DNA from: DRGV01 sp018903055 [NCBI: bacterium]
GTDB taxonomy: Bacteria > UBP18 > UBA7526
Direction: 5' to 3'
Assembly (NCBI GenBank): GCA_018903055.1
Contig: JAHIPW010000069.1
Span: 1-13,465 of the forward strand
DNA length: 13,465 bases
The notes beneath the pieces were generated by a model. It made no database searches. It saw nothing but the letters and a program-made list of their open reading frames with translations, and was not told the origin of the DNA. The position numbers and the translations under genes were made by a program. Positions 17 through 13,465 of the stretch are shown one piece after another; position 1 is the first letter of the stretch; each line of letters begins with the position of its first letter.

Positions 17-448
17 TCATTTCTCACTTTCAATTATCTGAATAATTTTAGAACGATAAGTGCTTTGATCCTTTACCTTTTTGTTGTAGCGCCAGATGAG
101 AACAAAGGAGAGAACCAAAAAGACTAATCCCAGAACAAGGCCCACTGTCTGGGAAGATTCCTTAAGGCCTAAGCGATTAGTAATAGTAATACCAAGCACC
201 ATGCCTAAGATTAAGGCAAGAAGAGGAAAGATATAGATTAGGAAAGCACCCTTTAATATTTCCCGGGAAGAGATCTCCACTTTTACCCTCTGGCCTATCC
301 TCGCACCCAGGGGATTTTCTGCCTCTGTAATCATGGTATTTCCCGTACCCAGAGTGCAGGCACGACAGGTCCCACAGGCACTTTTTCTCTTGATCTCAAC
401 CTGAGCGAGATTTCCTTTTATTTCGATTACTATGCCTTCTTCTTCCAT
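17..448 (-). CDS. RseC/MucC-like membrane redox protein
   Basis: This 143-residue protein resembles the RseC/MucC (SoxR-reducing system) family. What is seen: a soluble N-terminal part with a cysteine cluster C25-x2-C28-x2-C31, a hydrophilic stretch to about residue 65, then two hydrophobic segments at about 67-90 and 101-120, and a basic cytoplasmic-looking tail. Known members are small two-helix inner-membrane proteins that accompany Rnf/Rsx electron-transfer complexes or sigma-E control genes. The cysteines could bind a metal or Fe-S centre, which is inference. It starts 4 bases after the iscS stop and is almost certainly co-transcribed with it. The window ends 16 bases after its stop, so whether rnf genes follow cannot be seen. 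Family assignment is good; the exact role is uncertain. Confidence 0.75.
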   Translation of the reverse strand: MEEEGIVIEIKGNLAQVEIKRKSACGTCRACTLGTGNTMITEAENPLGARIGQRVKVEISSREILKGAFLIYIFPLLALILGMVLGITITNRLGLKESSQTVGLVLGLVFLVLSFVLIWRYNKKVKDQSTYRSKIIQIIESEK

Positions 449-452
449 TCAA

Positions 453-1619: not shown

Positions 1620-2664
1620 CTTTTTCCTCCAGATTTTTAAACCTTTTTTTCAAACTATGTCCAAAACTTGAAGCAATAGTTCTCCCCAAAGACTTAACCA
1701 TCCCCTGAATGCAAGAGTGACAATCTTCAGCATCTTCAAAAATACAGATTTTGTCAGGATATATTTGATAATCTCTTCTATATTTCTGCGGGGTAATATT
1801 GGGCATAATTACATTAGCGCCACACTGGAGAGCCTTCTGTCTACCCAGTGGATCTATTGTGCCTACCGCTGTAGTAGCTGGAATATGAGCATTCTTGGTA
1901 ACTATACGAGCTATAGCAATTATTTTCAGCACCGCATCCAAACTCCCAGTTTTGGTATTTCTTAATGGCGTATCATAATGAGGGATAAAAGGTCCTATGC
2001 CAACCATATCTACATCTAATTTTTTAAACAGCAAAATGTCTTCGGCTAGACTTTCTACAGATTGTCCGGGTAAACCCACCATATTACCTGAGCCTACCTG
2101 ATAACCTAACTCTTTCAGCCAACTTAAGCACTTTAGTCTATCTTCGTAGAATAGGTCAGGGTGTAACCTTTTATAAAGGGGGTAATCAGATGTTTCATGT
2201 TTAAGCAAAAATCTATCTGCCCCTGCTTCTTTCATAACTTCGTATTCCTGCCGCGGTCTCTCACCGATACATAAGGTAATAGCAAGATGAAGTTCTTTTT
2301 TAATCTTCTTGATGAGAAGACACAAATCTTCTACTCTATAAGCAGGGTCCTCTCCTGATTGAAGGACCACTGTTTTAAAGTTAAGGGTCTGTGTTTTCAG
2401 AGCGGTTTGAAAGATTTCCGAAAATGTCATTCGATAGCGATGGAGACGAGCATTACTCCTCCGCAACCCACAATAAAGACAATCCCTGCGGCAATAATTG
2501 GAAAATTCTATTATTCCGCGCAAATGTATTTCATCGCCCATATATTTTTTTCTTGTCTTATCTGCTATCTGATACAGGCGGTAAACTTCTTCCTTGTTCT
2601 TTGTTTTTAAAAGTTCAATTATCTTTCTTTTAGATAATGTTCCTTCTTCTTCTGACGGGTTCAT
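1600..2664 (-). CDS. hydE: HydE-type radical SAM maturase
   Basis: Radical SAM enzyme of 354 residues, very like HydE of [FeFe]-hydrogenase H-cluster maturation. The SAM cluster motif is C58-x3-C62-x2-C65 inside [20 protein letters not shown], a HydE hallmark. QSGEDP (102-107), the GERPRQEY region, GLPGQ (197-201), GIGPFIPH (222-229) and CGANVIMPN (281-289) also match the family. A C-terminal triad C307-x7-C315-x2-C318 corresponds to the optional second cluster site of Thermotoga-type HydE. HydE acts on the Fe-CO-CN-cysteine synthon made by HydG. No hydF, hydG or hydrogenase gene lies in this window; the gene is sandwiched between larE (35-base overlap) and iscS (20-base overlap). It may serve a hydrogenase encoded elsewhere or another sulfur-containing cofactor. 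Confidence 0.88.
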
Positions 2665-3442
2665 TCATACTCCCTGTCCTGTATCCCTCCAGGTCAAGGG
2701 TTACATAAGTATATCCCAACTCCTTAAATTTAGAGGCAATCTTATCTCTTAACTTCAAAAGTTTAGAAAGATTTTCCTTCGGAACTTCAATTCTGGCGAT
2801 ACTGCCATGATGCCTCACCCTCAGGCTGCCTTTAATCCCCAGTCCACACAGGAACCTCTCTGCCTCATCAATCTTTTTAAGATTCTCCCTGGTTATCTTC
2901 GTTCCATAGGGAAAACGGGAGGCGAGGCAGGCGAAGGCTGGCTTATCCCAGGTGGAGAGGTCAAGTTCCTTTGACAATTGGCGGATCTCTCTCTTAGTAA
3001 GTCTTGCTTCCGCAAGGGGAGACCGCACCCCGAACTCCCTGGCTGCTCTTCTGCCTGGACGAAAGTCCCGGCGGTCATCATAATTTGTCCCATCCAGGAT
3101 ATAATTCATTCCATTCTTTTTGGCAATAGTCGAAAGTTGAGAGAATAACTCCTTCTTACACCAGTAACACCTGTTCAATGGGTTATAAAAAAAGTTAGGG
3201 TCGGATAATTCTTTGGTCTTGATAATTATATGTCCTACTTTCAATCTTTCTGTCATCTCTTTAGCCGCCTTGAACTCCGAAGAAGGATAGGTCAGAGAAT
3301 CAGCGGTAACTGCCAAAACTCTTTCCCCCAAGGTGTCCTTTGCCATTTTGAGAAGCAGAGTGCTATCTACACCGCCTGAATAAGCGAAAAGCACGCTTTC
3401 CATATTGGATAGAATTTTCTTTAACTTTTCTAATTTAGTCAT
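2630..3442 (-). CDS. larE: LarE-type ATP-dependent sulfur transferase (Fe-S type)
   Basis: PP-loop protein of 270 residues of the LarE family, which adenylates the pyridinium dicarboxylate carboxylates and replaces them with thiocarboxylates during synthesis of the nickel-pincer cofactor of lactate racemase-like enzymes. The ATP-binding SGGVDS is at 22-27. Three cysteines stand out: C92 and C95 in NRCYWCK, and C172 in AFACLASRFPYG. LarE proteins with this triad are thought to hold a [4Fe-4S] cluster that binds the transferred sulfur, unlike the single-cysteine sacrificial type, so catalytic turnover is expected. Neither larB nor larC is nearby. The ribosome site is weak (GGTAGG, close to the ATG, within a small stem 3444-3458), so translation may depend on upstream iscU. 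The substrate in this context is open. Confidence 0.88.
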   Translation of the reverse strand: MTKLEKLKKILSNMESVLFAYSGGVDSTLLLKMAKDTLGERVLAVTADSLTYPSSEFKAAKEMTERLKVGHIIIKTKELSDPNFFYNPLNRCYWCKKELFSQLSTIAKKNGMNYILDGTNYDDRRDFRPGRRAAREFGVRSPLAEARLTKREIRQLSKELDLSTWDKPAFACLASRFPYGTKITRENLKKIDEAERFLCGLGIKGSLRVRHHGSIARIEVPKENLSKLLKLRDKIASKFKELGYTYVTLDLEGYRTGSMNEPVRRRRNII

Positions 3443-3443
3443 A

Positions 3444-3498
3444 GCCTACCAGATAGGCACTCGCTTCACTAAGGGGAGCCAAGGCCTTAATTCCCCTC
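3444..3498 (-). other. Inverted repeats in the iscU-larE spacer
   Basis: The 54-base spacer contains two inverted repeats. GCCTA/TAGGC (3444-3458, 5-base loop) ends two bases before the larE start and covers its only SD-like bases. GGGG/CCCC arms (about 3474-3496) enclose the palindrome AAGGCCTT. No T-run follows on the coding strand, so neither looks like an intrinsic terminator. They could tune translation of larE relative to iscU or stabilise mRNA ends. Confidence 0.4.
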
Positions 3499-3904
3499 AT
3501 TTCTTCTTTCGATAATCCTCAATGGCGGCCTTCAGGGCATCCTCTGCCAAGACGGAACAGTGCATCTTAATGGGTGGCAGACCGTCCAGGGCCTCGGCTA
3601 CTGCCCTATCTGAGATCTCAAGCGCCTCATCGACTTTCTTGCCCTTCACCATCTCAGTAATCATACTACTCGTGGCAATGGCCGCACCGCATCCGAAAGT
3701 CCGGAACTTGGCATCCGTTATTATCTCCTCCGTCTTCCCCTCTGCCTCTTTATTCTCAACCTTAATCTGTAATTCCATGATATCGCCACATACCGGATTC
3801 CCCGCCCTTCCCCTTCCCGAGGGGTTCTCTATCTCTCCCACATTCCTAGGATTCTGGAAGTGCTCCATCACCTTCTTACTATATAACGACCAGTAATCAG
3901 CCAT
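3497..3904 (-). CDS. iscU: Fe-S cluster scaffold IscU/NifU-N
   Basis: Scaffold protein of 135 residues on which [2Fe-2S] and [4Fe-4S] clusters are assembled from IscS sulfur. The three conserved ligand cysteines are present: C39 in NPVCGD (with the conserved Asp41), C72 in FRTFGCGAA and C116 in LPPIKMHCSVLAEDALKAAI. The N-terminal YSKKVMEHFQNPRNVGEI is typical of the NifU/IscU family. An acidic, lysine-rich loop at 49-62 is slightly longer than in proteobacterial IscU. There is no NifU C-terminal domain, so this is a single-domain scaffold. It has a GGGAG ribosome site seven bases before the start and lies 48 bases after the Rrf2 regulator. HscA/HscB and ferredoxin genes of the classic isc operon are absent, so this is a reduced Isc set. 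Confidence 0.96.
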   Translation of the reverse strand: MADYWSLYSKKVMEHFQNPRNVGEIENPSGRGRAGNPVCGDIMELQIKVENKEAEGKTEEIITDAKFRTFGCGAAIATSSMITEMVKGKKVDEALEISDRAVAEALDGLPPIKMHCSVLAEDALKAAIEDYRKKK

Positions 3905-3952
3905 TTCTTTCTCCCATTCTTAAGTAAAACAGTCAGAAATATCTCCAAAAAA

Positions 3953-4417
3953 TTAGATCTGGAAGGCGAAAGGATGTTTCGGCTCCTTGCCTTTGGATAG
4001 CTGGCGGGCCTCTTCACAGAGGTCTTCCAGGGTAACCGCATCTAAAGTCTCGGCAAGTTTCTCACTCGTTCTCTTCCAGAGTAGACGCGTTATGCAGCGA
4101 TCTGCCCGGTGACATTCCTTTTTTCTTTCTTCAGGATCCACACAGTATACCAGGGATATGGGCCCCTCTATCGCCCGGATGACATCTCCAATTTTTATTC
4201 TGCCAGGTTTCTTGGTTAAGAAAAAACCTCCCCTTGGCCCTCGTGTGCCTTCTACCAGGCCCTCTCTTCTCAGACGAGCAAAGAGCTGCTCCAGATAGTT
4301 TATCGAGATCTCCTCTCTCTGGGAGATATCCTTTAAGGGGATGGGGCCCTGACCATAGCGCAGGGCGAGATCGAGCATGGCCCTTACTCCATATCTTCCC
4401 TTGGTAGAAAGTCTCAT
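3953..4417 (-). CDS. Rrf2-family regulator (IscR-like, cysteine triad)
   Basis: Winged-helix regulator of 154 residues, Rrf2 family. It begins MRLSTKGRYGVRAMLDLA, the canonical family start, followed by the recognition region ISINYLEQLFARLRREGLV and the wing RGPRGGFFL (59-67). Cluster-binding candidates are C92, C102 and C108 (C-x9-C-x5-C), the spacing found in many Gram-positive-type IscR proteins instead of the proteobacterial C-x5-C-x5-C. One more cysteine is in LEDLCEEA near the C terminus. Its position directly upstream of iscU suggests that it senses Fe-S supply and controls the isc genes, possibly also the cysteine genes (CymR-like). It has no ribosome site of its own: the ATG overlaps the stop of a 12-codon ORF that does have one. 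A match to family length supports the chosen start. Confidence 0.92.
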   Translation of the reverse strand: MRLSTKGRYGVRAMLDLALRYGQGPIPLKDISQREEISINYLEQLFARLRREGLVEGTRGPRGGFFLTKKPGRIKIGDVIRAIEGPISLVYCVDPEERKKECHRADRCITRLLWKRTSEKLAETLDAVTLEDLCEEARQLSKGKEPKHPFAFQI

Positions 4418-4455
4418 TACAACGACGCGCTTCGCTTGCCTCGTTTAATTAGCAT
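4417..4455 (-). CDS. Putative 12-codon leader peptide coupled to the Rrf2 gene
   Basis: A short ORF encoding MLIKRGKRSASL. An AAGGAGG ribosome site (4464-4470) lies eight bases before its ATG, and its TAA overlaps the ATG of the Rrf2 gene in TAATG. The Rrf2 gene has no Shine-Dalgarno sequence of its own, so reinitiation after this peptide is the likely route to its translation. The peptide is strongly basic (five K/R in twelve) with no cysteine. A TATAAT (4454-4459) overlaps the ATG. If that were a -10 box, transcripts starting about 4447 would lack the ribosome site, but no good -35 is seen. No homology is claimed; evidence is position and ribosome site only. Confidence 0.45.
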   Translation of the reverse strand: MLIKRGKRSASL

Positions 4456-4471
4456 TATAAAGCCCTCCTTT

Positions 4472-4879
4472 TTAAAAAAGAATCTCTATTGCTTTATAGG
4501 GACAGGCCCTTAAACAATTTTCACAGACAATACATCTTTCCTTATCAAAAGAGATTCGGCGGCTCTTCCGATCCATGATAAAGGCCTCTGTGGGACAGAT
4601 GGCTAAACAGACTCCACAGTGGGTACATTTTTTCTCATTCCACTTGATATCCTGAGCAAGAGACTCTATTTTTATTCCCAAGTCTTTTAAGAATTTAATT
4701 CCTCTGTCCAGGTCCCTTTTATCTCCCGTTACTTCTAAAACTAACAACCCCTCTTCCCTGGGAGTGACCCGGGCCCTCAAGATATTTATGATTAGGTCGT
4801 AATCCTTAACAAGATGATAGGTGATGGGTTTATCTACCAGAGAATGGGGAAAATTTAGAACGATCCTTTTCTTTGCCAT
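4472..4879 (-). CDS. NIL-domain 2[4Fe-4S] ferredoxin (homocysteine synthesis partner)
   Basis: Protein of 135 residues. Residues 1-77 form a NIL-type ACT-like domain (RIVLNFPHSLVDKPITYHL, with the beta-rich LLVLEVTGD region), as found in MetN. Residues 83-131 carry two ferredoxin motifs: C85-x2-C88-x2-C91-x3-C95-P and C116-x2-C119-x2-C122-x3-C126-P. This matches the MA1822-type partner of the DUF39 L-aspartate semialdehyde sulfurtransferase, needed to make homocysteine from sulfide in methanogens; it probably supplies electrons or handles sulfur. The start at 4879 is preferred over a longer frame to 5014, because MAKKRIVLNF is the natural domain start, an AGAGG ribosome site precedes it, and the longer form would overlap the radical SAM gene by over 130 bases. 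It starts one base after that gene's stop. Confidence 0.9.
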   Translation of the reverse strand: MAKKRIVLNFPHSLVDKPITYHLVKDYDLIINILRARVTPREEGLLVLEVTGDKRDLDRGIKFLKDLGIKIESLAQDIKWNEKKCTHCGVCLAICPTEAFIMDRKSRRISFDKERCIVCENCLRACPYKAIEILF

Positions 4880-4880
4880 C

Positions 4881-6239
4881 TCATTTCCTCTTATGTTTAT
4901 ATTCGTTCTCCCAGATGGGATCCGCCACCTTAGCCCACTCCTGAGCATATTCATCCATCTTATCCGCAAACTTAGTAAGAACCTGTTCTGCTCCTGGATG
5001 GGTGGGATGGGCACCGCTTGAAGCCACTACCTCTCTTAGTACCTCTGGATGGTCATGGAGTGGGCAGGTGCGCATAAGGTTCTTCTCGTGTGCTTGGCGC
5101 TCTCTCATGGCCCGGAAGAAGGGGGAGTTCAAAACCTCTTTTAACGATTTCTCCTTAATATTATCCACAGCAAAATGGGTGAAGACACAGGGCTCAACAT
5201 CTCCTTTGTTATTGATGTGGAAGTACCTCCTTCCAGCGGCAATACATCCTCCCACAACGGCCCCATCGATGAAGAAGCTGGCTAATAGGATGGGCCTGGT
5301 ATCCCGAATCTCCTGCTCTCTTCTGAGGAGCATGGCGCGCTGCTCTGGAGTGGGAACCAGATTCCAATTGGGATGGTGCCCTACTGGGGTATACAGAAAG
5401 TACCAGCCGATGACACATCCTTTCTTAATGAGCATCTCGATGAACTCATCACTGGTAACTACATCGGCATTCTCCTTGGTATAAGTAGCAGAGAAGGCAA
5501 ATAAGACCCGGTGCTTGCGCAGGATATCCATGGCTCTCATCACCTGATCGAATGTCCCCTCACCCCTTCGTTTATCTGTCTCCTTCTTAAATCCCTCGAG
5601 ACTGAGACAGGTTAAGACATTGCCCACTTTTAAGAGACGCTTAGCCATCTTATCATCAATGAGTGTCCCATTGGTATAAACCATAAAAGAGGTATTCTTG
5701 TGCTTTTCGAAAATATCAAATATATCCTCTCTTAAGAAGGGCTCTCCCCCGCTGATGCAGACATAATACATCCCCATCTCGTTGGCCTCTTTTATCACCC
5801 GGTCGATGACCTCGTAGGGAAGATCATCCTCTTTAGTATAACTTGCTGCATAGCAGCCATGGCAGCGAAGGTTACATCTCATGGTGGGGCTCATTAAGAA
5901 AAATCCCGGGGGATAGAAGCCTTCCTTTTCTAAAAACTCCTTTCTCTTATTACTTCCTACTAAAAGCTGATTGATGACAAAGGCTCTTATGACCCGTCTT
6001 CTATGATGAGGATGGCTCTGACGGATGATTCTCTTGGCCACCTCCAAGGCCGGATGCCCCTCTTGAAAGAGCTTCCGAATCTTTCTGATCTGCCTTAAGT
6101 AATGCTCCCTCTTGGTAATTCTCTCTGCCAAATAAGTTAATCTAATCATATTCCTGTCTGAGCCGCGAGCGAGAAAAATCATAAAGAGATTGATTAACCA
6201 AGTTAAGGTATAATTTTTAATTCTCTGTAAACATCTCAT
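4881..6239 (-). CDS. Radical SAM/SPASM-like protein
   Basis: Radical SAM protein of 452 residues of unknown substrate. The cluster motif C122-x3-C126-x2-C129 (MRCNLRCHGCYA) is followed by GGEP (164-167), a SAM-binding sign. A C-terminal region with C332, C351 in NNKGDVEPCVF and C392 resembles a SPASM/twitch extension with an auxiliary cluster. Residues 1-110 are a basic, helical N-terminal region, including a hydrophobic stretch at 11-24 that may associate with membrane. The gene lies between the DUF39 sulfurtransferase and the NIL-ferredoxin that normally act together, so a role in homocysteine synthesis or in modifying one of them is plausible but unproven. A start at Met31 is possible, but the ATG at 6239 has an AGGAG site five bases upstream. 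A stem-loop precedes it. Confidence 0.88.
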   Translation of the reverse strand: MRCLQRIKNYTLTWLINLFMIFLARGSDRNMIRLTYLAERITKREHYLRQIRKIRKLFQEGHPALEVAKRIIRQSHPHHRRRVIRAFVINQLLVGSNKRKEFLEKEGFYPPGFFLMSPTMRCNLRCHGCYAASYTKEDDLPYEVIDRVIKEANEMGMYYVCISGGEPFLREDIFDIFEKHKNTSFMVYTNGTLIDDKMAKRLLKVGNVLTCLSLEGFKKETDKRRGEGTFDQVMRAMDILRKHRVLFAFSATYTKENADVVTSDEFIEMLIKKGCVIGWYFLYTPVGHHPNWNLVPTPEQRAMLLRREQEIRDTRPILLASFFIDGAVVGGCIAAGRRYFHINNKGDVEPCVFTHFAVDNIKEKSLKEVLNSPFFRAMRERQAHEKNLMRTCPLHDHPEVLREVVASSGAHPTHPGAEQVLTKFADKMDEYAQEWAKVADPIWENEYKHKRK

Positions 6240-6257
6240 ATTAGCTCCTTAGACATG

Positions 6258-6298
6258 AGGAGGTTGGCCTCCCTCTCTTAGCGAGGGAGGCCACTCCT
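6258..6298 (-). promoter_or_regulatory. Intercistronic stem-loop before the radical SAM gene
   Basis: An 11-bp perfect stem (6265-6275 with 6283-6293, 7-base loop) is extended by a 5-bp CTCCT/AGGAG helix after a 2-base bulge. No U-run follows, so it is not a standard terminator. The 3' arm's CTCCT (6258-6262) could alternatively pair with the AGGAG ribosome site of the radical SAM gene (6245-6249) across an 8-base loop. That would allow a translational switch or simply differential expression and mRNA stability between the DUF39 gene and the radical SAM gene. Confidence 0.6.
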
Positions 6299-6300
6299 AA

Positions 6301-7506
6301 CTACTTCACCGGCCTTTCCTTAAGGGGCTTGAAGGTCTGTCCAGAATCGACAGAAGGAAGATACTCCACCGGTTCGGTCAAGAGGAACTTTCCCTTCTCT
6401 ATCCAACCCTTAAGAATCTGAGCTATTTCTCTTGCTTTGGCGTAGCTGGATAGGCCAGCGGCTGGAACCTCTTTACCTTTCACCCTTATCTTCCCGCTCG
6501 TGAGTTGCTCGTAGTTCACCTCACCCAATGAACCAGGCAAGCCCTTCGGATAGGCCTCACTATAGTCCACAATCTGGGCATAGATCTGGGAGTCCTTAAC
6601 CGCGGTATACTTCAAAATCTTCTCATTCAAGATGGGAATGGGAATCCCTATTCCTACAGTTGAGGTAACCCCATAGCCGGTAAAAGTCGTTCCCACTAGC
6701 CAATCCGGAGACATCTTCTTCAGGTCTCCGATGACCGCGACAGTTCCTGCTGGTGCCTTCGGGACGCCGTTCTTCGTCCTTTTCACCGTGGGGTTATGCT
6801 GGGTTCCGCTCCAGGCAACATATCCTATCGCCCCTCCCAAAAAGATCCTGGTTCCAATACCAATCGTCTCATAATAGGGATCGTTCAGCAGGGGAGAGAG
6901 CTGACCAGCAGAACAGTAGTTGGCATTCCCCAGATTGGGCTGCAGAACACCCATATAGGTATAGATCACCCTATCTGAGAGGTTGACGGCCACGTTGTAG
7001 TTCTGGTAGGCATTCCTGGGGTTGTAAAGGACAACTTCGTTCAGATCCTTGATGTTAATCAGGGTCTCTATCTCCTTCCTGGGATAGCAGTCCGTTCCAT
7101 AGGCAGTTGCCTTAAGTCTCACATCCTTCCCTGCTACCAGATCCTCTATGACATGTCCTCCACCATACTTGAACTCCCCAGGGTAGACCTTATTCCTAGG
7201 GTCATCGTCTGGAAGGGCGGTTGCTCCCAGGTAGACGTCTACCGCAGCAAATCCGGTATAGACCGGGACGTCATTGAGATAGGCCTTTCCTCCACCGAGC
7301 TTAATCTTGGGTTTGGCATGCCCTAGGTTGAGATAGACCCCAGAGGAACACATGGGGCCGAAGGTCCCTGTGGTAACAACATCTACTTCCTTTGCTACTG
7401 CCTTTACCCCCTTCTTCTCCACAAGGTCTATTATCTCCTCTGCAGTAACTACTACTGCCTTTCCTTTTCTAATCTTCTCGTTTATCTCTTTTATCGTCTT
7501 AGCCAT
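6301..7506 (-). CDS. DUF39 L-aspartate semialdehyde sulfurtransferase (homocysteine biosynthesis)
   Basis: Protein of 401 residues of the DUF39/HcyBio family. The methanogen homologue MA1821 puts sulfide on aspartate semialdehyde to make homocysteine without O-acetylhomoserine. Family-like features: TTGTFGPMCSSGVYLNLGH with C53, GTDCYPRKE with C140, NYCSAG with C198, and glycine-rich IFLGGAIGYVAWSGTQHNP (221-239). Two cysteines equivalent to C53 and C140 are regarded as catalytic. It lacks the C-terminal CBS pair found in the methanogen protein; the frame ends after residue 401 in a basic KPLKERPVK tail, so the short form is natural. The GGAGGAGG ribosome site lies five bases upstream. Downstream are a radical SAM gene and the NIL-ferredoxin partner. 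Upstream is a 22-codon ORF whose TAG touches the ATG. Confidence 0.9.
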   Translation of the reverse strand: MAKTIKEINEKIRKGKAVVVTAEEIIDLVEKKGVKAVAKEVDVVTTGTFGPMCSSGVYLNLGHAKPKIKLGGGKAYLNDVPVYTGFAAVDVYLGATALPDDDPRNKVYPGEFKYGGGHVIEDLVAGKDVRLKATAYGTDCYPRKEIETLINIKDLNEVVLYNPRNAYQNYNVAVNLSDRVIYTYMGVLQPNLGNANYCSAGQLSPLLNDPYYETIGIGTRIFLGGAIGYVAWSGTQHNPTVKRTKNGVPKAPAGTVAVIGDLKKMSPDWLVGTTFTGYGVTSTVGIGIPIPILNEKILKYTAVKDSQIYAQIVDYSEAYPKGLPGSLGEVNYEQLTSGKIRVKGKEVPAAGLSSYAKAREIAQILKGWIEKGKFLLTEPVEYLPSVDSGQTFKPLKERPVK

Positions 7507-7575
7507 CTAAACCTCCTCCTTTTTAATGAATTTATGAGTTCTGCCCCAGAGGGGGCCGACCATGGTCCATATCAT
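7507..7575 (-). CDS. Putative 22-codon small ORF abutting the DUF39 gene
   Basis: A 22-codon ORF beginning MIWTMVGPLWGR and ending in KKEEV. It has an AGGTGAT ribosome site (7581-7587) five bases before the ATG, and its TAG directly adjoins the ATG of the DUF39 gene. Its last codons run across the DUF39 ribosome site, so translating ribosomes would control access to it. It carries two tryptophans (3, 10). The DNA inside it holds the palindrome GACCATGGTC (7558-7567) and a GCCCC/GGGGC stem (7543-7556). It could be a regulatory leader peptide or a small protein. It may also be fortuitous, since the C-terminal KKEE merely reflects the AAAAAGGAGGAGG sequence. No homology is claimed. Confidence 0.4.
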   Translation of the reverse strand: MIWTMVGPLWGRTHKFIKKEEV

Positions 7576-7619
7576 TTCTCATCACCTGCCTTCTTCACTC
7601 TAATATAACGAGGTATTTC

Positions 7620-8549
7620 TTAGCTTTTTATAAAGAGATCAGTGGTCAGGTATCTCTCTCCAGTATCTGGTAGAATAACCACCACTGTTTTTCCTTTACC
7701 CAATCTCTTGGCCACTTTCAAGGCCGCCCAGCAAGCAGCGCCACTCGATATTCCTACGAATAATCCTTCCTCCTTTGCCAATCTGCGAGAGGTACGAGCA
7801 GCCTCCTCATTGGAGACAGTAATAATCTCATCCAGAATATCAGTATTAAGCACTTTAGGAACGAAACCGGCACCGATCCCTTGAATCTTGTGAGAACCAG
7901 AGGGACAGCCAGAGAGGACGGCAGAAGCAGCCGGCTCCACCGCCACAAGTTTTACCTTGGGATTTTTCTTTCTCAATACCTCTCCCACTCCAGTAATGGT
8001 TCCCCCAGTTCCTATTCCTGCTACAAAGGCATCGATATCCTCTCCCACCTGTTCCAGGATCTCAACCGCTGTGGTCTTTCTATGGATCTCCGGGTTAGCG
8101 GGATTATTGAATTGCTGGGGCATGAAGTAGTCCGGGTTCTTCCCGATCAGTTCCTCCGCCTTCTTCACCGCCCCCTTCATTCCTTCTGTTCCCGGAGTCA
8201 GAATGAGCTCTGCTCCAAAGGCCTTTAGGAGATTCCTCCTCTCAATGCTCATGGTATCCGGCATGGTGAGGATGAGTTTATATCCCTTCACTGCTGCCAC
8301 CATGGCCAGTCCAATCCCGGTATTCCCACTCGTTGGTTCGACAATGGTCGCTCCTGGCTTTAGCTTCCCTTCTTTCTCCGCTGCCTCTACCATGGAGAGA
8401 CATATCCTATCCTTGACGCTCGATACTGGATTGAACATCTCTAATTTTGCCCATACCGTGGCATCGTCCTCGCCCACTATCTTATTCAGCCTCACCACAG
8501 GTGTCTGACCGATGAGCTCCAGAATACTATTCGCTCTACGCGCTAACAT
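7620..8549 (-). CDS. cysK: Cysteine synthase (O-acetylserine sulfhydrylase)
   Basis: PLP-dependent enzyme of 309 residues making cysteine from O-acetylserine and sulfide. Visible marks: the PLP lysine K46 in PVSSVKDR, the substrate loop [10 protein letters not shown] (71-80), the phosphate-binding GTGGT (180-184), SSGAA (268-272) near the pyridine nitrogen, and [10 protein letters not shown] near the C terminus. There is no CBS extension, so it is CysK/CysM-type, not cystathionine beta-synthase. A GGAGGT ribosome site precedes the ATG. The matching acetyltransferase CysE lies three genes upstream and ends in isoleucine, as needed for the cysteine synthase complex. An alternative is use of a carrier-protein thiocarboxylate as sulfur donor (CysM-like), given the neighbouring MoaD/ThiS and ThiF genes. 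The repeat-rich spacer upstream separates it from moaD. Confidence 0.96.
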
Positions 8550-8564
8550 AGGTTACCTCCTTTC

Positions 8565-8755
8565 ATACACGGATAATCACTGATTTTAGATACTGATTTG
8601 CACGGATTTATCCGTGTGTATCTGTTCTATTATCTGCGGCCATCTGCGTCTTGATCTGCCCCTCGGATCCTGCCCCTCTGGGGTTCTCGTCCCGAGACCC
8701 CATTCGGGGTCGAGGGAAAGGATTCTCGGGATCCTGAAGGGCGTAAATCTGCGTA
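8565..8755. repeat. Interspersed-repeat-like spacer with inverted and direct repeats
   Basis: The 206-base gap between the carrier gene and cysK has no ORF or RNA gene that I recognise. It contains ACACGGATAA (8567-8576) facing TTATCCGTGT (8608-8617), an overlapping CACGGAT/ATCCGTG palindrome (8601-8616), ATCTGCG copies at 8632, 8642 and 8747, a GACCCC/GGGGTC hairpin (8696-8711), and GGATCC palindromes near 8665 and 8730. ATCTGCG and ATCCGTGT phrases of this kind recur in intergenic repeats of many environmental bacteria. The block lies immediately after the moaD stop and just before the cysK ribosome site, as if inserted between co-directional genes. Confidence 0.6.
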
Positions 8756-9034
8756 TTAGCCACCGGCAATGGGGGGAAAGATGTGTAAAATATCTCCTTC
8801 TTTCAAAGTGGTTTTTTTAATCTCTTTCCTATCCACGCTACGACCAGAGAGGAGAAGGATATAATAATCTTTAATCTTGCCACTGGGCTCATAGAGTTGA
8901 TCTGTGAACTTAGTGCCAAACTGTTCCCTGAGCTCTTCCAGAGCATCTGCCACATTCTTTGCTTCCAATTCCACCTTTCCCTTTCCCACTTTCTCCTTCA
9001 AAGTGGTATAGAACCTTACCGTTATCCTTGCCAT
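8756..9034 (-). CDS. MoaD/ThiS-type sulfur carrier protein
   Basis: Ubiquitin-fold sulfur carrier of 92 residues ending in IAGG, the C-terminal diglycine that an E1-like enzyme adenylates and converts to a thiocarboxylate. It begins ITVRFYTTLKEKVGKGKVELE, as in archaeal-type MoaD, and has the typical KEGDILHIFPPIAGG end. No residue follows GG, so no JAMM protease is needed to mature it. The activating ThiF/MoeB-like gene lies 12 bases upstream, with GGAGG before this start. It could serve molybdopterin or tungstopterin synthesis. However, its neighbours are cysteine and thiazole genes, and Thi4 needs no carrier, so donation to a cysteine- or homocysteine-making enzyme (as in the CysO or HcyS systems) is an attractive alternative. 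No moaE or thiG is present. Confidence 0.9.
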   Translation of the reverse strand: MARITVRFYTTLKEKVGKGKVELEAKNVADALEELREQFGTKFTDQLYEPSGKIKDYYILLLSGRSVDRKEIKKTTLKEGDILHIFPPIAGG

Positions 9035-9046
9035 CTCTTGCCTCCT

Positions 9047-9856
9047 CTATTTACTCGGGTCTTCGCCTAAGATTATGCGCAATGCAGCATTTGCCTCATG
9101 GTGGGCGGCGATTCCCACCCTGGGGGCCATGAGACCACAGCCCGGTCGGGCAGCAGTCTTTAAATCTCCGATGGCATATAAATTCTTCCCAACCTTCCTG
9201 GTCTTGATAGTATTATTGGACTCATATCCCGCCAGACCAGAGACGAAGATGAGGGGGATATGGGGTAGTCTCTTTGTGGCTACAGAGATAATGAGTTCTT
9301 TCTGATCTGCCTTGTCAAAGGCTTCTATCAAGACATCGACCTTCTTGAATATTCTCGGGATATTCTTCTCCGTAAGTCTTGTCTGATGGGTTACTACCTT
9401 GACATAGGGGTTTATTCTTTTTAAGTTATCTTTCATGGCCTTCACCTTTGGCTGGCCTATCTGGTCGGTGAAGAACTGCTGACGATTGAGGTTGGAGGGC
9501 TCCACCACATCATCATCTACGATGACTATCTTGCCCATACCGATCCTGGCCAGGGCAATGGCCACGGCGCTCCCCAATCCTCCAGCGCCGGCAATTCCCA
9601 CGGTGCATTTCTTTACCTTTTCGTGGACCCCAGGGGTATGGCGAGAGACCATAAGAGCCTCTAATTCCTTTTTAGAAGGAATCTCTCCTCTCCTTATAAG
9701 GACTACTTCATCCCCATTCTTCAAGGTAACATCCTTGGGCATGGGCGCACCATTATAGATAACAACATCCGCCTCTGGCTTATAACGCTTTTTAATCTCT
9801 TGGAGGGTAATTCCCTTCTTTGCCTCGATCCTTCTCTCGTTATACTTGATCCACAT
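9047..9856 (-). CDS. thiF: ThiF/MoeB-family E1-like enzyme with N-terminal ThiS-like domain
   Basis: Protein of 269 residues. Residues 1-57 form a ThiS-like beta-grasp domain (YNERRIEAKKGITLQEI to NGDEVVLIRRG) without a C-terminal GG, so it is a structural domain and not a carrier. Residues 80-265 are the adenylating domain: nucleotide loop GIAGAGGLGSA (87-97), DDD at 114-116, the adenylation Arg125 in NLNRQQF, K137, and GEDPSK at the end. C240 in ARPGCGLM is the best candidate for the acceptor thiol; the MoeB zinc CxxC pairs are absent. This layout fits the ThiF family 2 type. It should activate the GG carrier encoded 12 bases downstream. Its ATG overlaps the cysE stop in TAATG, and its ribosome site GGGGGAGGG is read as the GGG codons of the CysE tail. 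Confidence 0.85.
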   Translation of the reverse strand: MWIKYNERRIEAKKGITLQEIKKRYKPEADVVIYNGAPMPKDVTLKNGDEVVLIRRGEIPSKKELEALMVSRHTPGVHEKVKKCTVGIAGAGGLGSAVAIALARIGMGKIVIVDDDVVEPSNLNRQQFFTDQIGQPKVKAMKDNLKRINPYVKVVTHQTRLTEKNIPRIFKKVDVLIEAFDKADQKELIISVATKRLPHIPLIFVSGLAGYESNNTIKTRKVGKNLYAIGDLKTAARPGCGLMAPRVGIAAHHEANAALRIILGEDPSK

Positions 9857-10578
9857 TAGATCCCTCCCCCATGAGTGAATTCATCCAGGATGTGTCTTCT
9901 GGGGACTTCCTCTTCCTCGGGAGGAGAGATTCCCTGGGTCTTTTCCAAGACTTTAATCCTCTCGCCTAACTTATCCTGTTTCTTCAATAGGATATTGACC
10001 GCCTCTGCTACGGGATCGGGGAGTTTACCATGTTCCAGATCGATTAAGGGTCTTACTTTTGGTGCTGCAGTTTCCACTACTCTTCCCGGGACTCCGACTA
10101 CCGTAGCATTAGGAGGAACTGGCTTCACCACTACCGAACCGCTTCCAATCTTTGCCCCATTGCCTATCTCTATGGCCCCTAAGATAGTGGCTCCGGTGCC
10201 GATGACTACATTATTCCCAATGGTGGGATGGCGCTTCTTCTTCTCCAGACTCGTCCCTCCAAGAACTACCCCCTGATACATCAAGACATCCTCTCCCACT
10301 TCAGAGGTTTCCCCAATGACTATCCCCATCCCGTGATCGATGAAGAACCTGTGACCGATCTTTGCTCCGGGATGGATCTCAATTCCGGTTAGCCCCCGGC
10401 TAATATGAGAAAGGAGCCGCCCCAGAAAGCGAAGCTTGTGTGTCCAGAAAAAATGGGCTATCCTGTGAAACCAGATGGCGTGCAGGCCAGGATAGCAAAA
10501 GAGTACCTCAGAGAGGCTTCTCGCTGCTGGGTCCTTGGCAAAGACTGTCCTGATATCCTCTAAGATTCTTTCAAACAT
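9856..10578 (-). CDS. cysE: Serine O-acetyltransferase
   Basis: Makes O-acetylserine from serine and acetyl-CoA, the first step of cysteine synthesis. The protein has 240 residues. A short helical N-terminal part contains [27 protein letters not shown] (16-42). A left-handed hexapeptide beta-helix follows at about 66-160 ([40 protein letters not shown]). Catalytic residues are probably D81/H82 in FIDHG and H117 in KRHPTI. The N-terminal domain is short, as in Gram-positive and plant-like compact enzymes. A charged, helical extension (185-230) ends in THGGGI. A terminal Ile after glycine is how CysE tails dock into the CysK active site, so a cysteine synthase complex with the downstream CysK is likely. 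It starts seven bases after the previous stop. Confidence 0.95.
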
Positions 10579-10585
10579 CCTGACC

Positions 10586-11425
10586 TCACCTTTTTAAAGA
10601 ATCTAAGATCTTTCGGTGGAAGGAACAGAATTCATAGGGTGATTTTAGTTGAGCATGGATCACATCCTCCTGCCAGTGAGCATTATAAAGTCGACAGTTC
10701 CGGTCACGACAGAAAGGGTCTCCCATTAAATAATAGAATAAAGCCTGCATAGCATAACCCTTCATCACTTCTGTAGTCCGGGGATCATTGTAATCTATAA
10801 AGCGACCCTGAAATTTCTCTTTCAAATCTGATGTCACTTTCTCTCTCATCCCCAGTATATGATACTCTCTCTTCAGAAGATAATATTCTTTGGGTTTGGC
10901 TGGTGCTTCTACCAAGCCAGTAGTAGAGATAATCGCGGGAAGGCCATAGATACTCACCCGGGCATGGTAACGGCCATCGCTTTGGCTCCAGGTGCCAAAG
11001 AGTTGATTGGTAAATATGATATGAAGATGCTTTAGCTCTTTCTCCTCTTTAGGGATTAACTCAGATAAAACTCCTTGCAACTTGAATCCCTGGTATAGAA
11101 TACCGAACGATTTGTGATTGGGCTCCTCAATCTTTTTCTTCTCATACTCCATCTCAGCAGATAGAGGCTCGAAAGATATCTCTTGAACAGTTAAGTTACT
11201 GATTCTGTTCTGGGCTATTCTTTTAGCTAACGAGTCTATGATCTCTTCCCGGTCTTTTTCCTTAAGAAAAGATAAATGGTGAATAAAGAATTTTTCTCTG
11301 GTATCAATCTCTATATTAGGCAACCTCTCCTTTAAGTAATCCGATATTTCCTTAACATCCAAAGCCTTGGCAGTTGGCTCTTCATAGAGATGAATGAAGT
11401 CTGGTTTGATAATCAGTCCCTTCAT
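10586..11425 (-). CDS. Archaemetzincin-like protein lacking the zinc histidines (DUF6775-like)
   Basis: Protein of 279 residues that I do not recognise with certainty; from memory it resembles a family annotated as DUF6775 putative metallopeptidase, mostly archaeal. A conserved-looking core [11 protein letters not shown] (134-144), [19 protein letters not shown] (152-170) and [17 protein letters not shown] precedes [17 protein letters not shown] (228-244). That stretch aligns position for position with the archaemetzincin signature HExxHxxGxxHC-x4-C: Gly235, Cys239 and Cys244 are kept, but the catalytic H, E, H and H are A228, L229, Y232 and F238. A further C267-x2-H270 mimics the final zinc pair. 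It is thus probably non-proteolytic, perhaps binding structural zinc. Its ATG overlaps the thi4 stop (ATGA), implying a linked function. Confidence 0.6.
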
Positions 11426-12207
11426 CTAAGAAGTTTTTTAGCTACCTCGGCTGCCCTCTTCCCGGAAAGGAGCATGGCGCCAAAGGTGGGACCCATTCTG
11501 GGAAGACCATAGGTAGTAGCCACTGCCATACCCGTTACTATAAGGCCAGGATGGGCCTCTCCGGTATGCTCCACAACTAAGTCTTCTGACCTCTCCACCC
11601 ACATAGCACCAAAACCCCTGGTCTTAATTAAGCCCCGTTCTTCTAACTTCCTTACCACACAAGCATCATGTCCCGTAGCATCGATGACCAACTTTGACTC
11701 CAAGGCTACAGGATCAACACAGGTGATCTCACGTGGAAGGGCAGATATTGGAGTCCAGTTTATCACTACCCCGGCTACCCTGTTTTCCTCTCTCAATATT
11801 AGATCATCGAAGATGGTCATATTGGCGAACTTAGCTCCGGCATCGCAGCAACTAGCGATGAGCTTGGAGCAGGCATGTGGACCATCAGCCACGTATAGGC
11901 CTTTCGTTGCCTCTTCATAAGGAATATCCAATTCTTCAAGAACCTTCTCTCCCGGTCCCCTCACCGTCACCTTATTCATCAGGTAGCCGCCGATCCAGAA
12001 GCCTCCACCCAGATAGTTATTCCTCTCCACAATCAGGACCTTGATCCCTTCTTTTGCCAACTCCCTGCCAGCCATTAAACCGCTCGGTCCTCCTCCCACA
12101 ATGATACAGTCGCTCTCCACATACTCTGTGAACTGCTTCAAGAAGCTGCTGACAATGGCTCTGGTTACCTCTTTCTCTCCTACCGGGGTGAATATTCTCT
12201 TCTTCAT
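11422..12207 (-). CDS. thi4: Thi4-family thiazole synthase (non-cysteine type)
   Basis: FAD/NAD-binding fold protein of 261 residues making the thiamin precursor ADP-thiazole (or, in some archaea, ribose-1,5-bisphosphate isomerase-like annotation) from NAD and glycine. Visible: dinucleotide loop [13 protein letters not shown] (35-47), [14 protein letters not shown] (61-74), DGPHACSKL (108-116) and the C-terminal [13 protein letters not shown] (237-249). Eukaryotic enzymes sacrifice a cysteine in an SSCGHD motif; the equivalent motif here is DATGHD (176-181). The donor cysteine is missing, so a sulfide-using, multiple-turnover enzyme with Fe is expected. C183 lies close by but out of register. 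An AAAGGAGGAG ribosome site lies three bases before the ATG. It heads the operon behind a sigma70-like promoter. No TPP riboswitch was recognised in its leader. Confidence 0.92.
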
Positions 12208-12232
12208 TTACTCCTCCTTTCAAGATAAGAAC

Positions 12233-12407
12233 CTGACTTCGTCAGAACCTTGTTTTGTTTATTGAAATTTCGATACTTCAAAATAAGCCTCACGGAGCCT
12301 GTCCCGCACCGAACTTGTTCTGGTGCGGGGTTCGGCAATCTGATTACACAGATATTTTAAGCAGCTTTAATCGGTGTAATCAAGCATAGGATTGAAATTC
12401 CTATGCT
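12233..12407. repeat. Nested inverted repeats in the thi4 leader
   Basis: The 327-base gap between the sufB-like gene and thi4 has no ORF with support. Its thi4-proximal part holds four inverted repeats: CTGAC/GTCAG (12233-12245, 3-base loop), CCCGCACC/GGTGCGGG (12303-12329, with inner GAAC/GTTC), TGATTACAC/GTGTAATCA (12341-12349 with 12374-12382) and AGCATAGGA/TCCTATGCT (12383-12407, 7-base loop). The direct repeat GAACCT occurs at 12229 and 12245. None has a following T-run on either strand that would make a clear terminator. The block would lie in the 5' untranslated RNA of thi4. It may be an intergenic repeat element or a structured leader. Confidence 0.55.
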
Positions 12408-12444
12408 GCAAGATAGGTTTATTACTAAAATAGTCAACAATTAT

Positions 12445-12473
12445 ATTAAAACATAACTAACTTAATTTGTCAA
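12445..12473 (-). promoter_or_regulatory. Sigma70-like promoter of the thi4 operon
   Basis: On the minus strand TTGACA (12473-12468, perfect -35) is separated by 17 bases from TTTAAT (12450-12445, 5 of 6 to TATAAT). Flanking DNA is very AT-rich. Transcription would begin near 12438, giving a leader of about 230 bases before the thi4 ATG. This is the only strong promoter I see in the window, so the long run of minus-strand genes may depend on it together with weaker internal promoters. Confidence 0.7.
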
Positions 12474-12483
12474 GAATTATTTT

Positions 12484-12507
12484 AAAAAAATTTTCTCTAC
12501 TAAGAGA
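12484..12507 (-). terminator. Weak intrinsic terminator after the sufB-like gene
   Basis: On the minus strand TCTCT-TAGT-AGAGA (12507-12494) forms a 5-bp stem with a four-base loop, then AAA and seven T. It lies 28 bases after the stop of the sufB-like gene and just before the thi4 promoter, where a terminator would be expected. The stem is short and AT-containing, so termination would be partial at best. Confidence 0.4.
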
Positions 12508-12534
12508 TTGTTAAATTTTAGTATCTAGCGTAGA

Positions 12535-13465
12535 CTATCTCAACATACCCCTGACCACGACATCGATGGCCTCTTCCTTGGAAAGTCCTCGGGCCATTAC
12601 CGTCTCAAGCTGCTTCTTATCTATACTGCCAATGGCTGCCTCATGAGTCACCCTTGCCCTATCATTGGTTACTTGAACAATGGGTAAGGCCCTTGCTTGC
12701 GCCTTTCCTTGGACGATCTCGATGCAGTCCACATGTCCCCTGCTAAAGGGAGCATTCCCCTCTGTGATGCCGATGGCCATGGTCTTTGCTCTATCCTTGA
12801 CCGCCACCCGGGCCTTGATGAGGCTCTTAGCATAAGGACCATCGAGAATTACTTTCTCCTTTATTCGGATGTCGTCATCACCCTTCCCATATACCTTGGC
12901 CACCAGTTCTGCCACTGCCTTCTCTTTTGCCCGGGCCTCATAGTCAATCGAGAGCTTACCAACCCTTCCCTTAATTAAGGTGAAACTGGTATCCAGCCTT
13001 CCTCCCTTATCAATATATATCTTACCCTGAGGGATGACCTCTGCCCCCCCACTCTCCCCATGGTAGTGGGTCTCGTGATAGCCCAAGAAGGCCCCCTTTC
13101 CGATCCGGAATTCAGCGCTCATAACATGCTTAATCTTTACTGCATTAGGGAAGGTACAGTGGGCAATTAGAGTGATACTTGAGCCATCCGCTATCTTAAC
13201 ATCAACATAAATCTCCTGCAGTCCTCTTTTGGGAAGGATGCCGAAGCAGAGATAGACCGGTTTCTCGATTTTGTATCCCTTTTGAGTAACCAGGGTTATT
13301 TTTACACCCTTAGGCAATTCCTCTGCCTGAAAGATTCTTATCCCTTCTATCTTTCTCTTCCCTAAGATCCTGTTCTTATTTACTACCAGAGAAGCACACT
13401 GAGGGTCTCTTAAGACCTTGGGATCGCCCCCTGCTTTTCGATAGGCCCGGGCCATACTCTCATAA
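12535..13465 (-). CDS. SufB/SufD-family Fe-S assembly protein (short, SmsB-like), 5' end cut
   Basis: At least 306 residues of a SufBD beta-helix protein, part of a SufBC-type Fe-S scaffold complex. Conserved end: GHVDCIEIVQGKAQARALPI, then VTHEAAIGSIDKKQLETVMARGLSKEEAIDVVVRGM. Cys244 and Glu272 (numbered from the ATG at 13455) probably correspond to the SufB cysteine and glutamate needed for sulfur handling. HYHGESGGAEVIPQG (130-144) is typical of the short archaeal/anaerobe form. The frame stays open to the window edge beyond that ATG, the ATG has only a weak GAG ahead of it, and RAYRKAGGDPKVL looks like the interior of the family's N-terminal helix, so the true start is probably outside. 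An ATPase gene (sufC) is expected upstream. It forms its own unit, separated from thi4 by terminator and promoter. Confidence 0.88.
   Translation of the reverse strand, partial: YESMARAYRKAGGDPKVLRDPQCASLVVNKNRILGKRKIEGIRIFQAEELPKGVKITLVTQKGYKIEKPVYLCFGILPKRGLQEIYVDVKIADGSSITLIAHCTFPNAVKIKHVMSAEFRIGKGAFLGYHETHYHGESGGAEVIPQGKIYIDKGGRLDTSFTLIKGRVGKLSIDYEARAKEKAVAELVAKVYGKGDDDIRIKEKVILDGPYAKSLIKARVAVKDRAKTMAIGITEGNAPFSRGHVDCIEIVQGKAQARALPIVQVTNDRARVTHEAAIGSIDKKQLETVMARGLSKEEAIDVVVRGMLR

What the first reader, a model, noticed from the sequence alone, without database searches (positions are those of the whole stretch)
10586..11425. Metzincin-like protein with all catalytic zinc residues replaced, translationally coupled to thi4
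Residues 228-239 line up exactly with HExxHxxGxxHC of archaemetzincins. The structural Gly and Cys are kept, but H/E/H/H become A/L/Y/F. The downstream C-x4-C and C-x2-H pairs keep the second zinc-site layout (C-x4-C-x-L-x20-C-x2-H against C-x4-C-x-M-x17-C-x2-C). A pseudo-protease whose gene overlaps thi4 by ATGA could be a scaffold, iron or sulfide handling partner, or a new enzyme of thiamin synthesis. The alignment is read directly; the functional link is inferred from gene order.
Basis: partly seen in the sequence, partly recalled or inferred. Interest (0 to 1): 0.7.

Follow-up and report, generated by a model that had tools for sequence, protein, structure and literature searches.

The report
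Dead-protease partner of vitamin-B1 enzyme

Summary
Window 10586-11425 (- strand) encodes a 279-aa protein whose start overlaps thi4 by ATGA. It scores in Pfam DUF6775 ("Probable metallopeptidase family") and the overlapping DUF7001. AlphaFold2 models of it and of a 31%-identical relative match archaemetzincins best (Z 13.3-15.0; next fold below 10). The catalytic zinc site is gone: no HExxH in 77 homologues and the third His is Phe in all 77, while C-x4-C ... C-x2-H/C persists. New invariants (R152, H154, N248, H250, an [10 protein letters not shown] insert) include positions that, by alignment, lined the old substrate groove.

The thi4 link is real and specific. In three surveys (682 genomes), 145 of 146 genomes with DUF6775 also hold a close relative of the window's Thi4. 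Where residues were read, all DUF6775-linked Thi4s have Cys at the sacrificial position; none of 80 sampled Thi4s of the other clade do. The pair is kept even when unlinked. Against necessity: many Cys-Thi4 genomes, including Haloferax volcanii, lack DUF6775.

Best reading: a dedicated non-proteolytic accessory of Cys-type THI4, acting at or after sulfur donation. Whether it restores the cysteine, disposes of spent enzyme, handles metal or processes product is undecided.

The parts
10586..11425 (-). DUF6775/DUF7001 gene, archaemetzincin-fold protein without catalytic zinc site, 279 aa
10709..10744 (-). codons of residues 228-239 ([12 protein letters not shown]), the ruined HExxHxxGxxHC segment
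   Evidence: per-position states over 77 homologues
10616..10711 (-). codons of residues 239-270, the kept C-x4-C ... C-x2-H site (counterpart of the archaemetzincin Cys4 zinc finger)
   Evidence: C239, C244, C267 in 77 of 77; 270 is H in 72, C in 5; profile alignment in register
10835..10924 (-). codons of residues 168-197, insert relative to archaemetzincins with the signature E-A-P-A-K-P-(K)-E-Y-Y
10958..10972 (-). codons of residues 152-156 (RYHAR); R152 and H154 align with the two bulge-edge Phe of archaemetzincins
   Evidence: PMC3427221 passages
11422..12207 (-). thi4, THI4-family thiazole synthase of the Cys clade
11719..11721 (-). [quoted passage not shown]
   Evidence: equivalence with yeast Cys205 via Haloferax Cys165 in PMC4215014 (passages)
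11422..11425 (-). ATGA stop/start overlap of thi4 and the DUF6775 gene
9856..10578 (-). cysE, serine O-acetyltransferase, next gene downstream (7-nt gap)
9047..9856 (-). ThiS-like + ThiF fusion (sulfur-carrier adenylyltransferase)
8756..9034 (-). MoaD/ThiS/SAMP1-like sulfur carrier

Best explanation
The protein is a dedicated, non-proteolytic accessory of Cys-type THI4 thiazole synthase. It has the archaemetzincin fold, has lost the catalytic zinc site, keeps a Cys3His (or Cys4) site that probably still holds a structural zinc, and has rebuilt the former substrate groove with new invariant residues. Shown: fold (by prediction), loss of catalytic residues, conservation, gene linkage, co-retention, restriction to Cys-type THI4. 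Inferred: that it binds THI4, that it uses the groove to do so, and that it acts at or after the step in which THI4 gives up its cysteine sulfur. The version I find most likely for the step itself is upkeep of the sacrificial site (holding the Cys-bearing segment of fresh or dehydroalanine-form THI4 so that sulfur can be loaded or put back); I give that version alone about 0.3, inside the overall figure below.
For: Pfam DUF6775 E 8e-102 and DUF7001 E 9e-90. AF2 model pLDDT 93.8, pTM 0.91, archaemetzincins ranks 1-4; second model of a distant member pLDDT 90.6, same result. No HExxH in 77. Invariants over 77 homologues include H154, P163, S167, A176, P178, Y182, D214, F238, C239, C244, N248, H250. 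Linkage: 66 of 74 named loci within 300 nt of thi4. Co-occurrence: all 19 bacterial and all 10 Halobacteriota survey genomes with DUF6775 hold a Cys-type Thi4; Nitrososphaeria 116 both, 10 Thi4 only, 1 DUF6775 only, 23 neither of 150, Fisher p 2.8e-18 without correction for kinship. In 21 of those 116 the genes are apart (12 same contig, 9 other contig), so linkage alone does not explain co-retention. Cys at the sacrificial position in every DUF6775-linked Thi4 read: 68 named loci and the window, 29 survey genomes. The few Cys-clade Thi4s that lost the Cys (4 Ala, 1 Tyr, 1 Thr) are all in genomes without DUF6775. ThiC in 34 of 35 DUF6775 genomes tested; thi4-DUF6775-thiC collinear in G019 and G247.
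Against: DUF6775 is not needed for Cys-type THI4: high-identity Thi4 without DUF6775 in 35 of 45 Halobacteriota genomes, 14 of 33 bacterial ones and 10 of 126 Nitrososphaeria. Haloferax volcanii, whose Thi4 needs its Cys (PMC4215014, passages), is a control genome without a DUF6775 match. No physical interaction was tested, and no coordinates were available to check that the invariants form one pocket. Trees of the two proteins correlate (r 0.77 for 81 pairs) but shared species history alone can do that.
Confidence: 0.65

Rival explanations
1. Disposal adaptor: it recognises spent (dehydroalanine) THI4 and hands it to the cell's own proteases, so that a suicide enzyme does not accumulate.
For: Explains restriction to Cys-type THI4 and a dead-protease fold that could still bind a peptide. 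PMC4215014 (passages) expects build-up of dehydroalanine Thi4 and reports high-mass forms seen with wild type and not with C165A.
Against: No protease or unfoldase gene recurs beside the pair in the clusters listed (not exhaustively annotated). Many Cys-type THI4 genomes do without it.
Confidence: 0.13
2. Independent enzyme of the thiazole branch, for example hydrolysis of ADP-thiazole to the thiazole phosphate, with a new active site made of R152, H154, R156, K177, H250 and neighbours.
For: The ADP-thiazole hydrolase of archaea was unassigned in PMC4215014 (passages). The new invariants are rich in Arg, His, Lys, Tyr, as an anionic ligand would need. Gene order thi4-DUF6775-thiC in G019 and G247.
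Against: Non-Cys THI4s should yield the same ADP-thiazole, yet none of the 85 Halobacteriota or 55 bacterial genomes whose only Thi4 match is of the other clade has DUF6775. Many Cys-type genomes lack it too.
Confidence: 0.1
3. Metal or sulfide delivery factor for THI4 (Fe(II) or Co(II)), using the Cys3His site or the groove.
For: THI4 is a metal enzyme and other THI4 genes neighbour metal-binding TRASH proteins (PMC8454699, passages). Three Cys and a His/Cys are conserved. The window cluster is about sulfur and Fe-S.
Against: The Cys3His/Cys4 site corresponds to the structural zinc finger of archaemetzincins (PMC3427221, passages). Non-Cys THI4s also need metal, yet lack this partner.
Confidence: 0.09
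4. Chance or hitch-hiking neighbour without a role tied to THI4.
For: Shared ancestry inflates counts within single groups such as Nitrososphaeria.
Against: Linkage recurs in Chloroflexota, Omnitrophota, Elusimicrobiota, Aerophobota, Nitrospirota, Thermodesulfobacteriota/Dadabacteria, Thermoplasmatota, Hadarchaeota, Archaeoglobi and Nitrososphaerota by record title, in same-strand and convergent orders, and survives separation of the genes.
Confidence: 0.03

Closest known systems
Archaemetzincin, peptidase family M54 (Pfam PF07998; AmzA, PDB 2x7m, 3lmc, 3zvs, 4axq)
   Same: Predicted fold (Z 13.3-15.0); C-x4-C-x-(M/L) ... C-x2-(C/H) layout in register; edge strand ending in an invariant Ser (S102 in the M54 alignment A2, S167 here).
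   Different: No HExxHxxGxxH, Leu in place of the Met-turn Met, an insert of about 30 residues after the edge strand with [10 protein letters not shown], an extra N-terminal stretch, no PF07998 match.
Pfam PF20565 DUF6775 'Probable metallopeptidase family' and PF22529 DUF7001
   Same: The protein and all 60 members of alignment A1 score in both models.
   Different: Nothing in the sequences supports the peptidase label: no HExxH in 77 homologues. The thi4 link was in no paper found under these names.
THI4 thiazole synthases and their reported gene neighbours (TRASH proteins, Co/Ni genes; PMC8454699, passages)
   Same: A gene tied to THI4 by gene context.
   Different: The reported context concerns non-Cys THI4; DUF6775 goes only with the Cys clade. 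The words 'DUF' and 'peptidase' do not occur in that paper's main text.
LarE sulfur insertases, sacrificial versus [4Fe-4S] multi-turnover forms (PMC9283937, abstract and passages)
   Same: A cysteine-sacrificing sulfur enzyme with a non-sacrificial counterpart; a LarE of the CxxC-C type lies in the same gene run.
   Different: LarE escapes sacrifice by a cluster on the enzyme itself, not by a partner protein; analogy only.

Membership tests
PF20565 DUF6775 | Score above the curated cut-off (27 bits) | tested here: met
   340.6 bits, E 7.9e-102, residues 8-276
PF22529 DUF7001 | Score above the curated cut-off (27 bits) | tested here: met
   300.8 bits, E 9.3e-90, residues 12-272
Archaemetzincin (M54) | Archaemetzincin fold | tested here: met
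   Predicted models only: Z 14.1 (2.7 A, 165 aligned) to 3lmc and Z 13.7 (3.2 A, 169) to 2x7m; distant member Z 15.0 (2.5 A, 162) to 3lmc; Foldseek 2x7m E 4.5e-4, probability 1.00, TM 0.42/0.62
Archaemetzincin (M54) | HExxHxxGxxH catalytic zinc motif | tested here: not met
   A/L/Y/F here; 0 of 77 homologues with HExxH; 0 of 28 survey loci
Archaemetzincin (M54) | Met-turn methionine (C-x-M) | tested here: not met
   Leu in 76, Val in 1 of 77
Archaemetzincin (M54) | Four Cys of the second zinc site, C-x4-C-x-M-x17-C-x2-C | tested here: inconclusive
   Three Cys invariant, fourth ligand H in 72 and C in 5 of 77; metal content not testable here
Archaemetzincin (M54) | Match to Pfam PF07998 | tested here: not met
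   Only the two DUF models at E <= 10; PF07998 not among the 25 families shown (of 35) for 60 members at E <= 10. Profile-profile comparison weak: 6% probability, E 0.006
Active metallopeptidase | Proteolytic activity | not testable with these tools
   Bench assay needed; catalytic ligands absent
Partner of Cys-type THI4 | Presence only with a THI4 of the Cys clade | tested here: met
   145 of 146 survey genomes with DUF6775; the exception G606 has the gene 129 nt from a contig start. Outside the surveys, G069 (locus L023) has no full-length Thi4, its DUF6775 gene being 150 nt from a contig end
Partner of Cys-type THI4 | Physical binding to THI4 | not tested

The most novel reading that the evidence does not exclude
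DUF6775 is a reactivation factor that turns the 'suicide' THI4 into a multi-turnover enzyme: a dead archaemetzincin whose rebuilt substrate groove holds the dehydroalanine loop of spent THI4 while sulfur from sulfide or a carrier is added back to regenerate the cysteine.
Probability: 0.2. Interest if true: 0.9.

Novelty: new variant of a known kind. Interest (0 to 1): 0.64.

Why it matters
Whether prokaryotic THI4s with the active-site cysteine are suicide enzymes, and what becomes of them, is open; PMC4215014 (passages) only expects build-up of the dehydroalanine form. A conserved partner found only with Cys-type THI4, in ammonia-oxidising archaea as well as in several bacterial phyla, makes the question testable with one extra gene. 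If it restores or stabilises THI4 it would bear on efforts to replace the costly suicide THI4 of plants (cost argument in PMC8454699, passages). It also suggests that the Pfam label 'Probable metallopeptidase' misleads, and gives a case of an archaemetzincin fold used without its zinc.

Tried and rejected
Sequence search against solved structures: nothing useful with the protein (best E 1.1) or with the 60-member profile (best E 0.68). NCBIfam: no family. Profile-profile comparison with 13 archaemetzincins is in the expected register but weak, so homology rests on predicted fold plus Cys spacing.

A replacement gene beside Cys-type thi4 where DUF6775 is missing: none recurs widely in 38 loci. 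Cysteine desulfurase-like genes follow in 5 of them (L119, L120, L122, L123, L162; the first four are near-identical Thi4s). Other sulfur-type genes there (PP-loop, ThiI-like) were recognised by eye only.

A simple 'DUF6775 is required by Cys-type THI4' was rejected: see the genomes without it. 'Translational coupling is general' was rejected: exact 4-nt overlap in 2 of 74 loci.

The mirror-tree correlation was first run with 98 rows that held duplicate loci of the same genomes and repeated without them (81 rows); only the second is used. The tree is a quick LG+G4 search on 115 rows: 32 of the 74 named loci were put in, and three DUF6775-free haloarchaeal or methanogen rows that had been fetched (L182, L185, L192) were left out; DUF6775 presence changes at least 9 times on it. 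One 67-aa Thi4 fragment (G092:C8) was dropped from the counts. Of the lower-identity Thi4 matches I read 40 of 94 (Halobacteriota) and 40 of 62 (bacteria). Thi4 residues were not read for the 126 Nitrososphaeria survey genomes; there 'Cys clade' means at least 55% identity to the window's Thi4, all named Nitrososphaerota Thi4s read having Cys. Pairing with a second Thi4 in the same genome: the window's own genome holds a His-type Thi4 at G000:C16.

No coordinates of the models were available, so 'the invariants line the groove' rests on alignments and on residue roles in PMC3427221 (passages).

Full report
What is there. Window 10586-11425, - strand, is an open frame of 279 aa that begins inside the stop of thi4 (ATGA). 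The window lies in an unnamed bacterial assembly of 1.09 Mb, 85% complete, in 191 contigs. The protein scores in two overlapping Pfam families of unknown function, DUF6775 ('Probable metallopeptidase family', E 8e-102) and DUF7001 (E 9e-90). It has no NCBIfam family, and one copy was found in its genome.

Fold. An alignment of 60 homologues (A1) gave an AlphaFold2 model with mean pLDDT 93.8 and pTM 0.91. Foldseek's only match at E <= 0.001 is archaemetzincin AmzA of Methanopyrus kandleri, 2x7m. With VIA-align the four archaemetzincin entries lead: 3lmc Z 14.1 (2.7 A, 165 aligned), 2x7m 13.7 (3.2 A, 169), 3zvs 13.6 (2.8 A, 156), 4axq 13.3 (2.9 A, 158); the next is TACE at 9.2. A second model, of a Dadabacteria member 31% identical to the window protein (pLDDT 90.6), gives the same order: 3lmc Z 15.0 (2.5 A, 162), 2x7m 14.0, 3zvs 13.6, 4axq 13.6, next 9.7. 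At sequence level the relation is faint: hhalign against 13 archaemetzincins (A2) aligns 43 columns at 6% probability, E 0.006, with C-x4-C and C-x2-H on the archaemetzincin Cys pairs, and a full-length version of that alignment is.

Lost and kept residues. Over 77 homologues (window, 74 named loci, two survey loci) the position of the first catalytic His is never His, the Glu never Glu, the third His is Phe in all 77, the Met-turn Met is Leu in 76; the second His is still His in 21. No homologue has HExxH anywhere. In 28 survey loci (two of them shared with the 77) there is again no HExxH, and the third position is Phe in 27 and Ser in 1. C239, C244 and C267 are invariant in the 77, position 270 is His in 72 and Cys in 5. 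The new conserved set includes R152, H154, R156, P163, S167, E173, A176, K177, P178, Y182, D214, Q227, N248, H250, W251, Q252 and Q259, each in at least 74 of 77. [quoted passage not shown] these residues move on ligand binding in PMC3427221 (passages). The stretch 168-197 with [10 protein letters not shown] is an insert relative to archaemetzincins. I read this as a protease groove rebuilt for one fixed partner or ligand; that step is inference.

Link to thi4. A scan of GTDB contigs gave 74 loci. Thi4 lies in 68 of them: 61 upstream on the same strand within 300 nt, 5 convergent within 300 nt, 2 farther off. Of the 6 without, 5 have the DUF6775 gene within 150 nt of a contig end and one (L067) is a true exception in place, its genome holding a Cys-type Thi4 elsewhere. 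Among neighbours of these loci thi4 is the only gene cluster shared widely across phyla: 27 of 31 non-Nitrososphaeria loci, the next largest 8.

Surveys. Bacteria-wide: DUF6775 in 19 of 386 genomes, Thi4 at E <= 1e-25 in 88. Halobacteriota: 10 of 146 and 130 of 146. Nitrososphaeria: 117 of 150 and 128 of 150. All 29 DUF6775 genomes of the first two surveys and 116 of 117 of the third hold a Thi4 at least 50% identical to the window's; the exception, G606, has DUF6775 129 nt from a contig start. Distance: bacteria 18 of 19 within 200 nt (three convergent), one on another contig; Halobacteriota 8 of 10 within 350 nt, others at 1.1 and 8.6 kb; Nitrososphaeria 95 of 116 directly downstream, 12 elsewhere on the same contig, 9 on another contig. 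The 14 well-known control genomes have no DUF6775.

Only the Cys clade. THI4s fall into two clades, the split being fully supported in a quick tree of 107 + 8 rows. [quoted passage not shown] In the Halobacteriota survey the high-identity clade has 46 sequences: DUF6775 genomes 10 Cys; the others 32 Cys, 4 Ala. In the bacterial survey 34: DUF6775 genomes 19 Cys; the others 13 Cys, 1 Tyr, 1 Thr. Of the low-identity clade 80 of 156 matches were read: 71 His, 4 Met, 2 Ser, 1 Gln, 1 Leu, 1 Pro, no Cys. The window's own genome has one of each clade, the second (His) on contig C16. Two further genomes with a DUF6775-linked Cys Thi4 (G062, G065) also hold a His-type Thi4.

Against necessity. High-identity Thi4 occurs without DUF6775 in 35 of 45 Halobacteriota genomes, 14 of 33 bacterial ones and 10 of 126 Nitrososphaeria. 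On the Thi4 tree presence changes at least 9 times. Haloferax volcanii, where Thi4 and its Cys165 are required for thiamin-free growth (PMC4215014, passages), is a control genome without DUF6775. So the protein helps, or is needed under some conditions, but is not part of the chemistry as such.

Setting. ThiC is present in 34 of 35 DUF6775 genomes tested; thi4, DUF6775 and thiC are collinear in G019 and G247. In the window the pair sits in one long run of - strand genes that includes cysE, a ThiS-ThiF fusion, a MoaD/SAMP1-like carrier, HcyBio, NifU, LarE, HydE, NifS and RseC; cysK, Rrf2 and the NIL-ferredoxin gene were named by eye. The setting is thiamin plus sulfur supply.

Mechanism. Yeast THI4 gives the sulfur of one Cys and is left with dehydroalanine (PMC4215014 and PMC8454699, passages). 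A partner found only with Cys-type THI4, without proteolytic residues, with a kept protease-like cleft and new invariants in it, is best explained as a THI4-dedicated binder acting at or after the sulfur step. Putting sulfur back, guarding the site, or marking spent enzyme would all fit; the present data do not separate them. An enzyme for ADP-thiazole or a metal donor fits less well, because non-Cys THI4s should need those too and never have the gene in these surveys.

Literature. No paper in the held library has DUF6775 or PF20565, PF22529, DUF7001. PMC8454699 was seen in passages and its main text has no 'DUF' or 'peptidase'. A search for THI4 with archaemetzincin or metallopeptidase terms listed 20 of 57 papers, none on this link by title and abstract start. 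A review of inactive metallopeptidases has no 'M54', 'archaea', 'thiam' or 'DUF' in its main text (PMC11266112). The library lacks most subscription papers.

Noticed in passing
window 17-13455, - strand: About fifteen collinear genes for sulfur, cysteine, homocysteine and Fe-S supply around thi4 (SufBD-like, cysE, ThiS-ThiF fusion, MoaD-like, HcyBio, NifU, LarE, HydE, NifS, RseC; cysK, Rrf2, NIL-ferredoxin by eye).
   Followed up: partly
window 2630-3442: LarE (TIGR00268) with CxxC (RCYWCK) and a third Cys (FACLASR), the CxxC-C layout that PMC9283937 (abstract, passages) links to a [4Fe-4S], non-sacrificial LarE; a second sulfur enzyme of a sacrificial kind in the same run.
   Followed up: partly
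G000:C16:2836-3591 (L237): Second Thi4 in the same genome, of the His type (NLHVDP), not next to DUF6775 as far as the matches show; why one cell keeps both types is unexplained.
   Followed up: partly
L106, L107, L114, L185; L165; L194: Cys-clade Thi4s with Ala, Tyr or Thr at the sacrificial position, all in genomes without DUF6775; candidates for independent change to sulfide use.
   Followed up: partly
L103 818-1489 (G197): Shortened, diverged DUF6775 (223 aa) that keeps RYH, APAKP-YY and FC-x4-C next to a Cys-type Thi4.
   Followed up: no
L119, L120, L122, L123, L162: Cys-type thi4 without DUF6775, followed by a cysteine desulfurase-like gene (identified by eye).
   Followed up: no
G656:C5:5198-5729: DUF6775 broken into pieces with stops beside an intact-looking Thi4, perhaps a recent loss or an assembly fault.
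   Followed up: no
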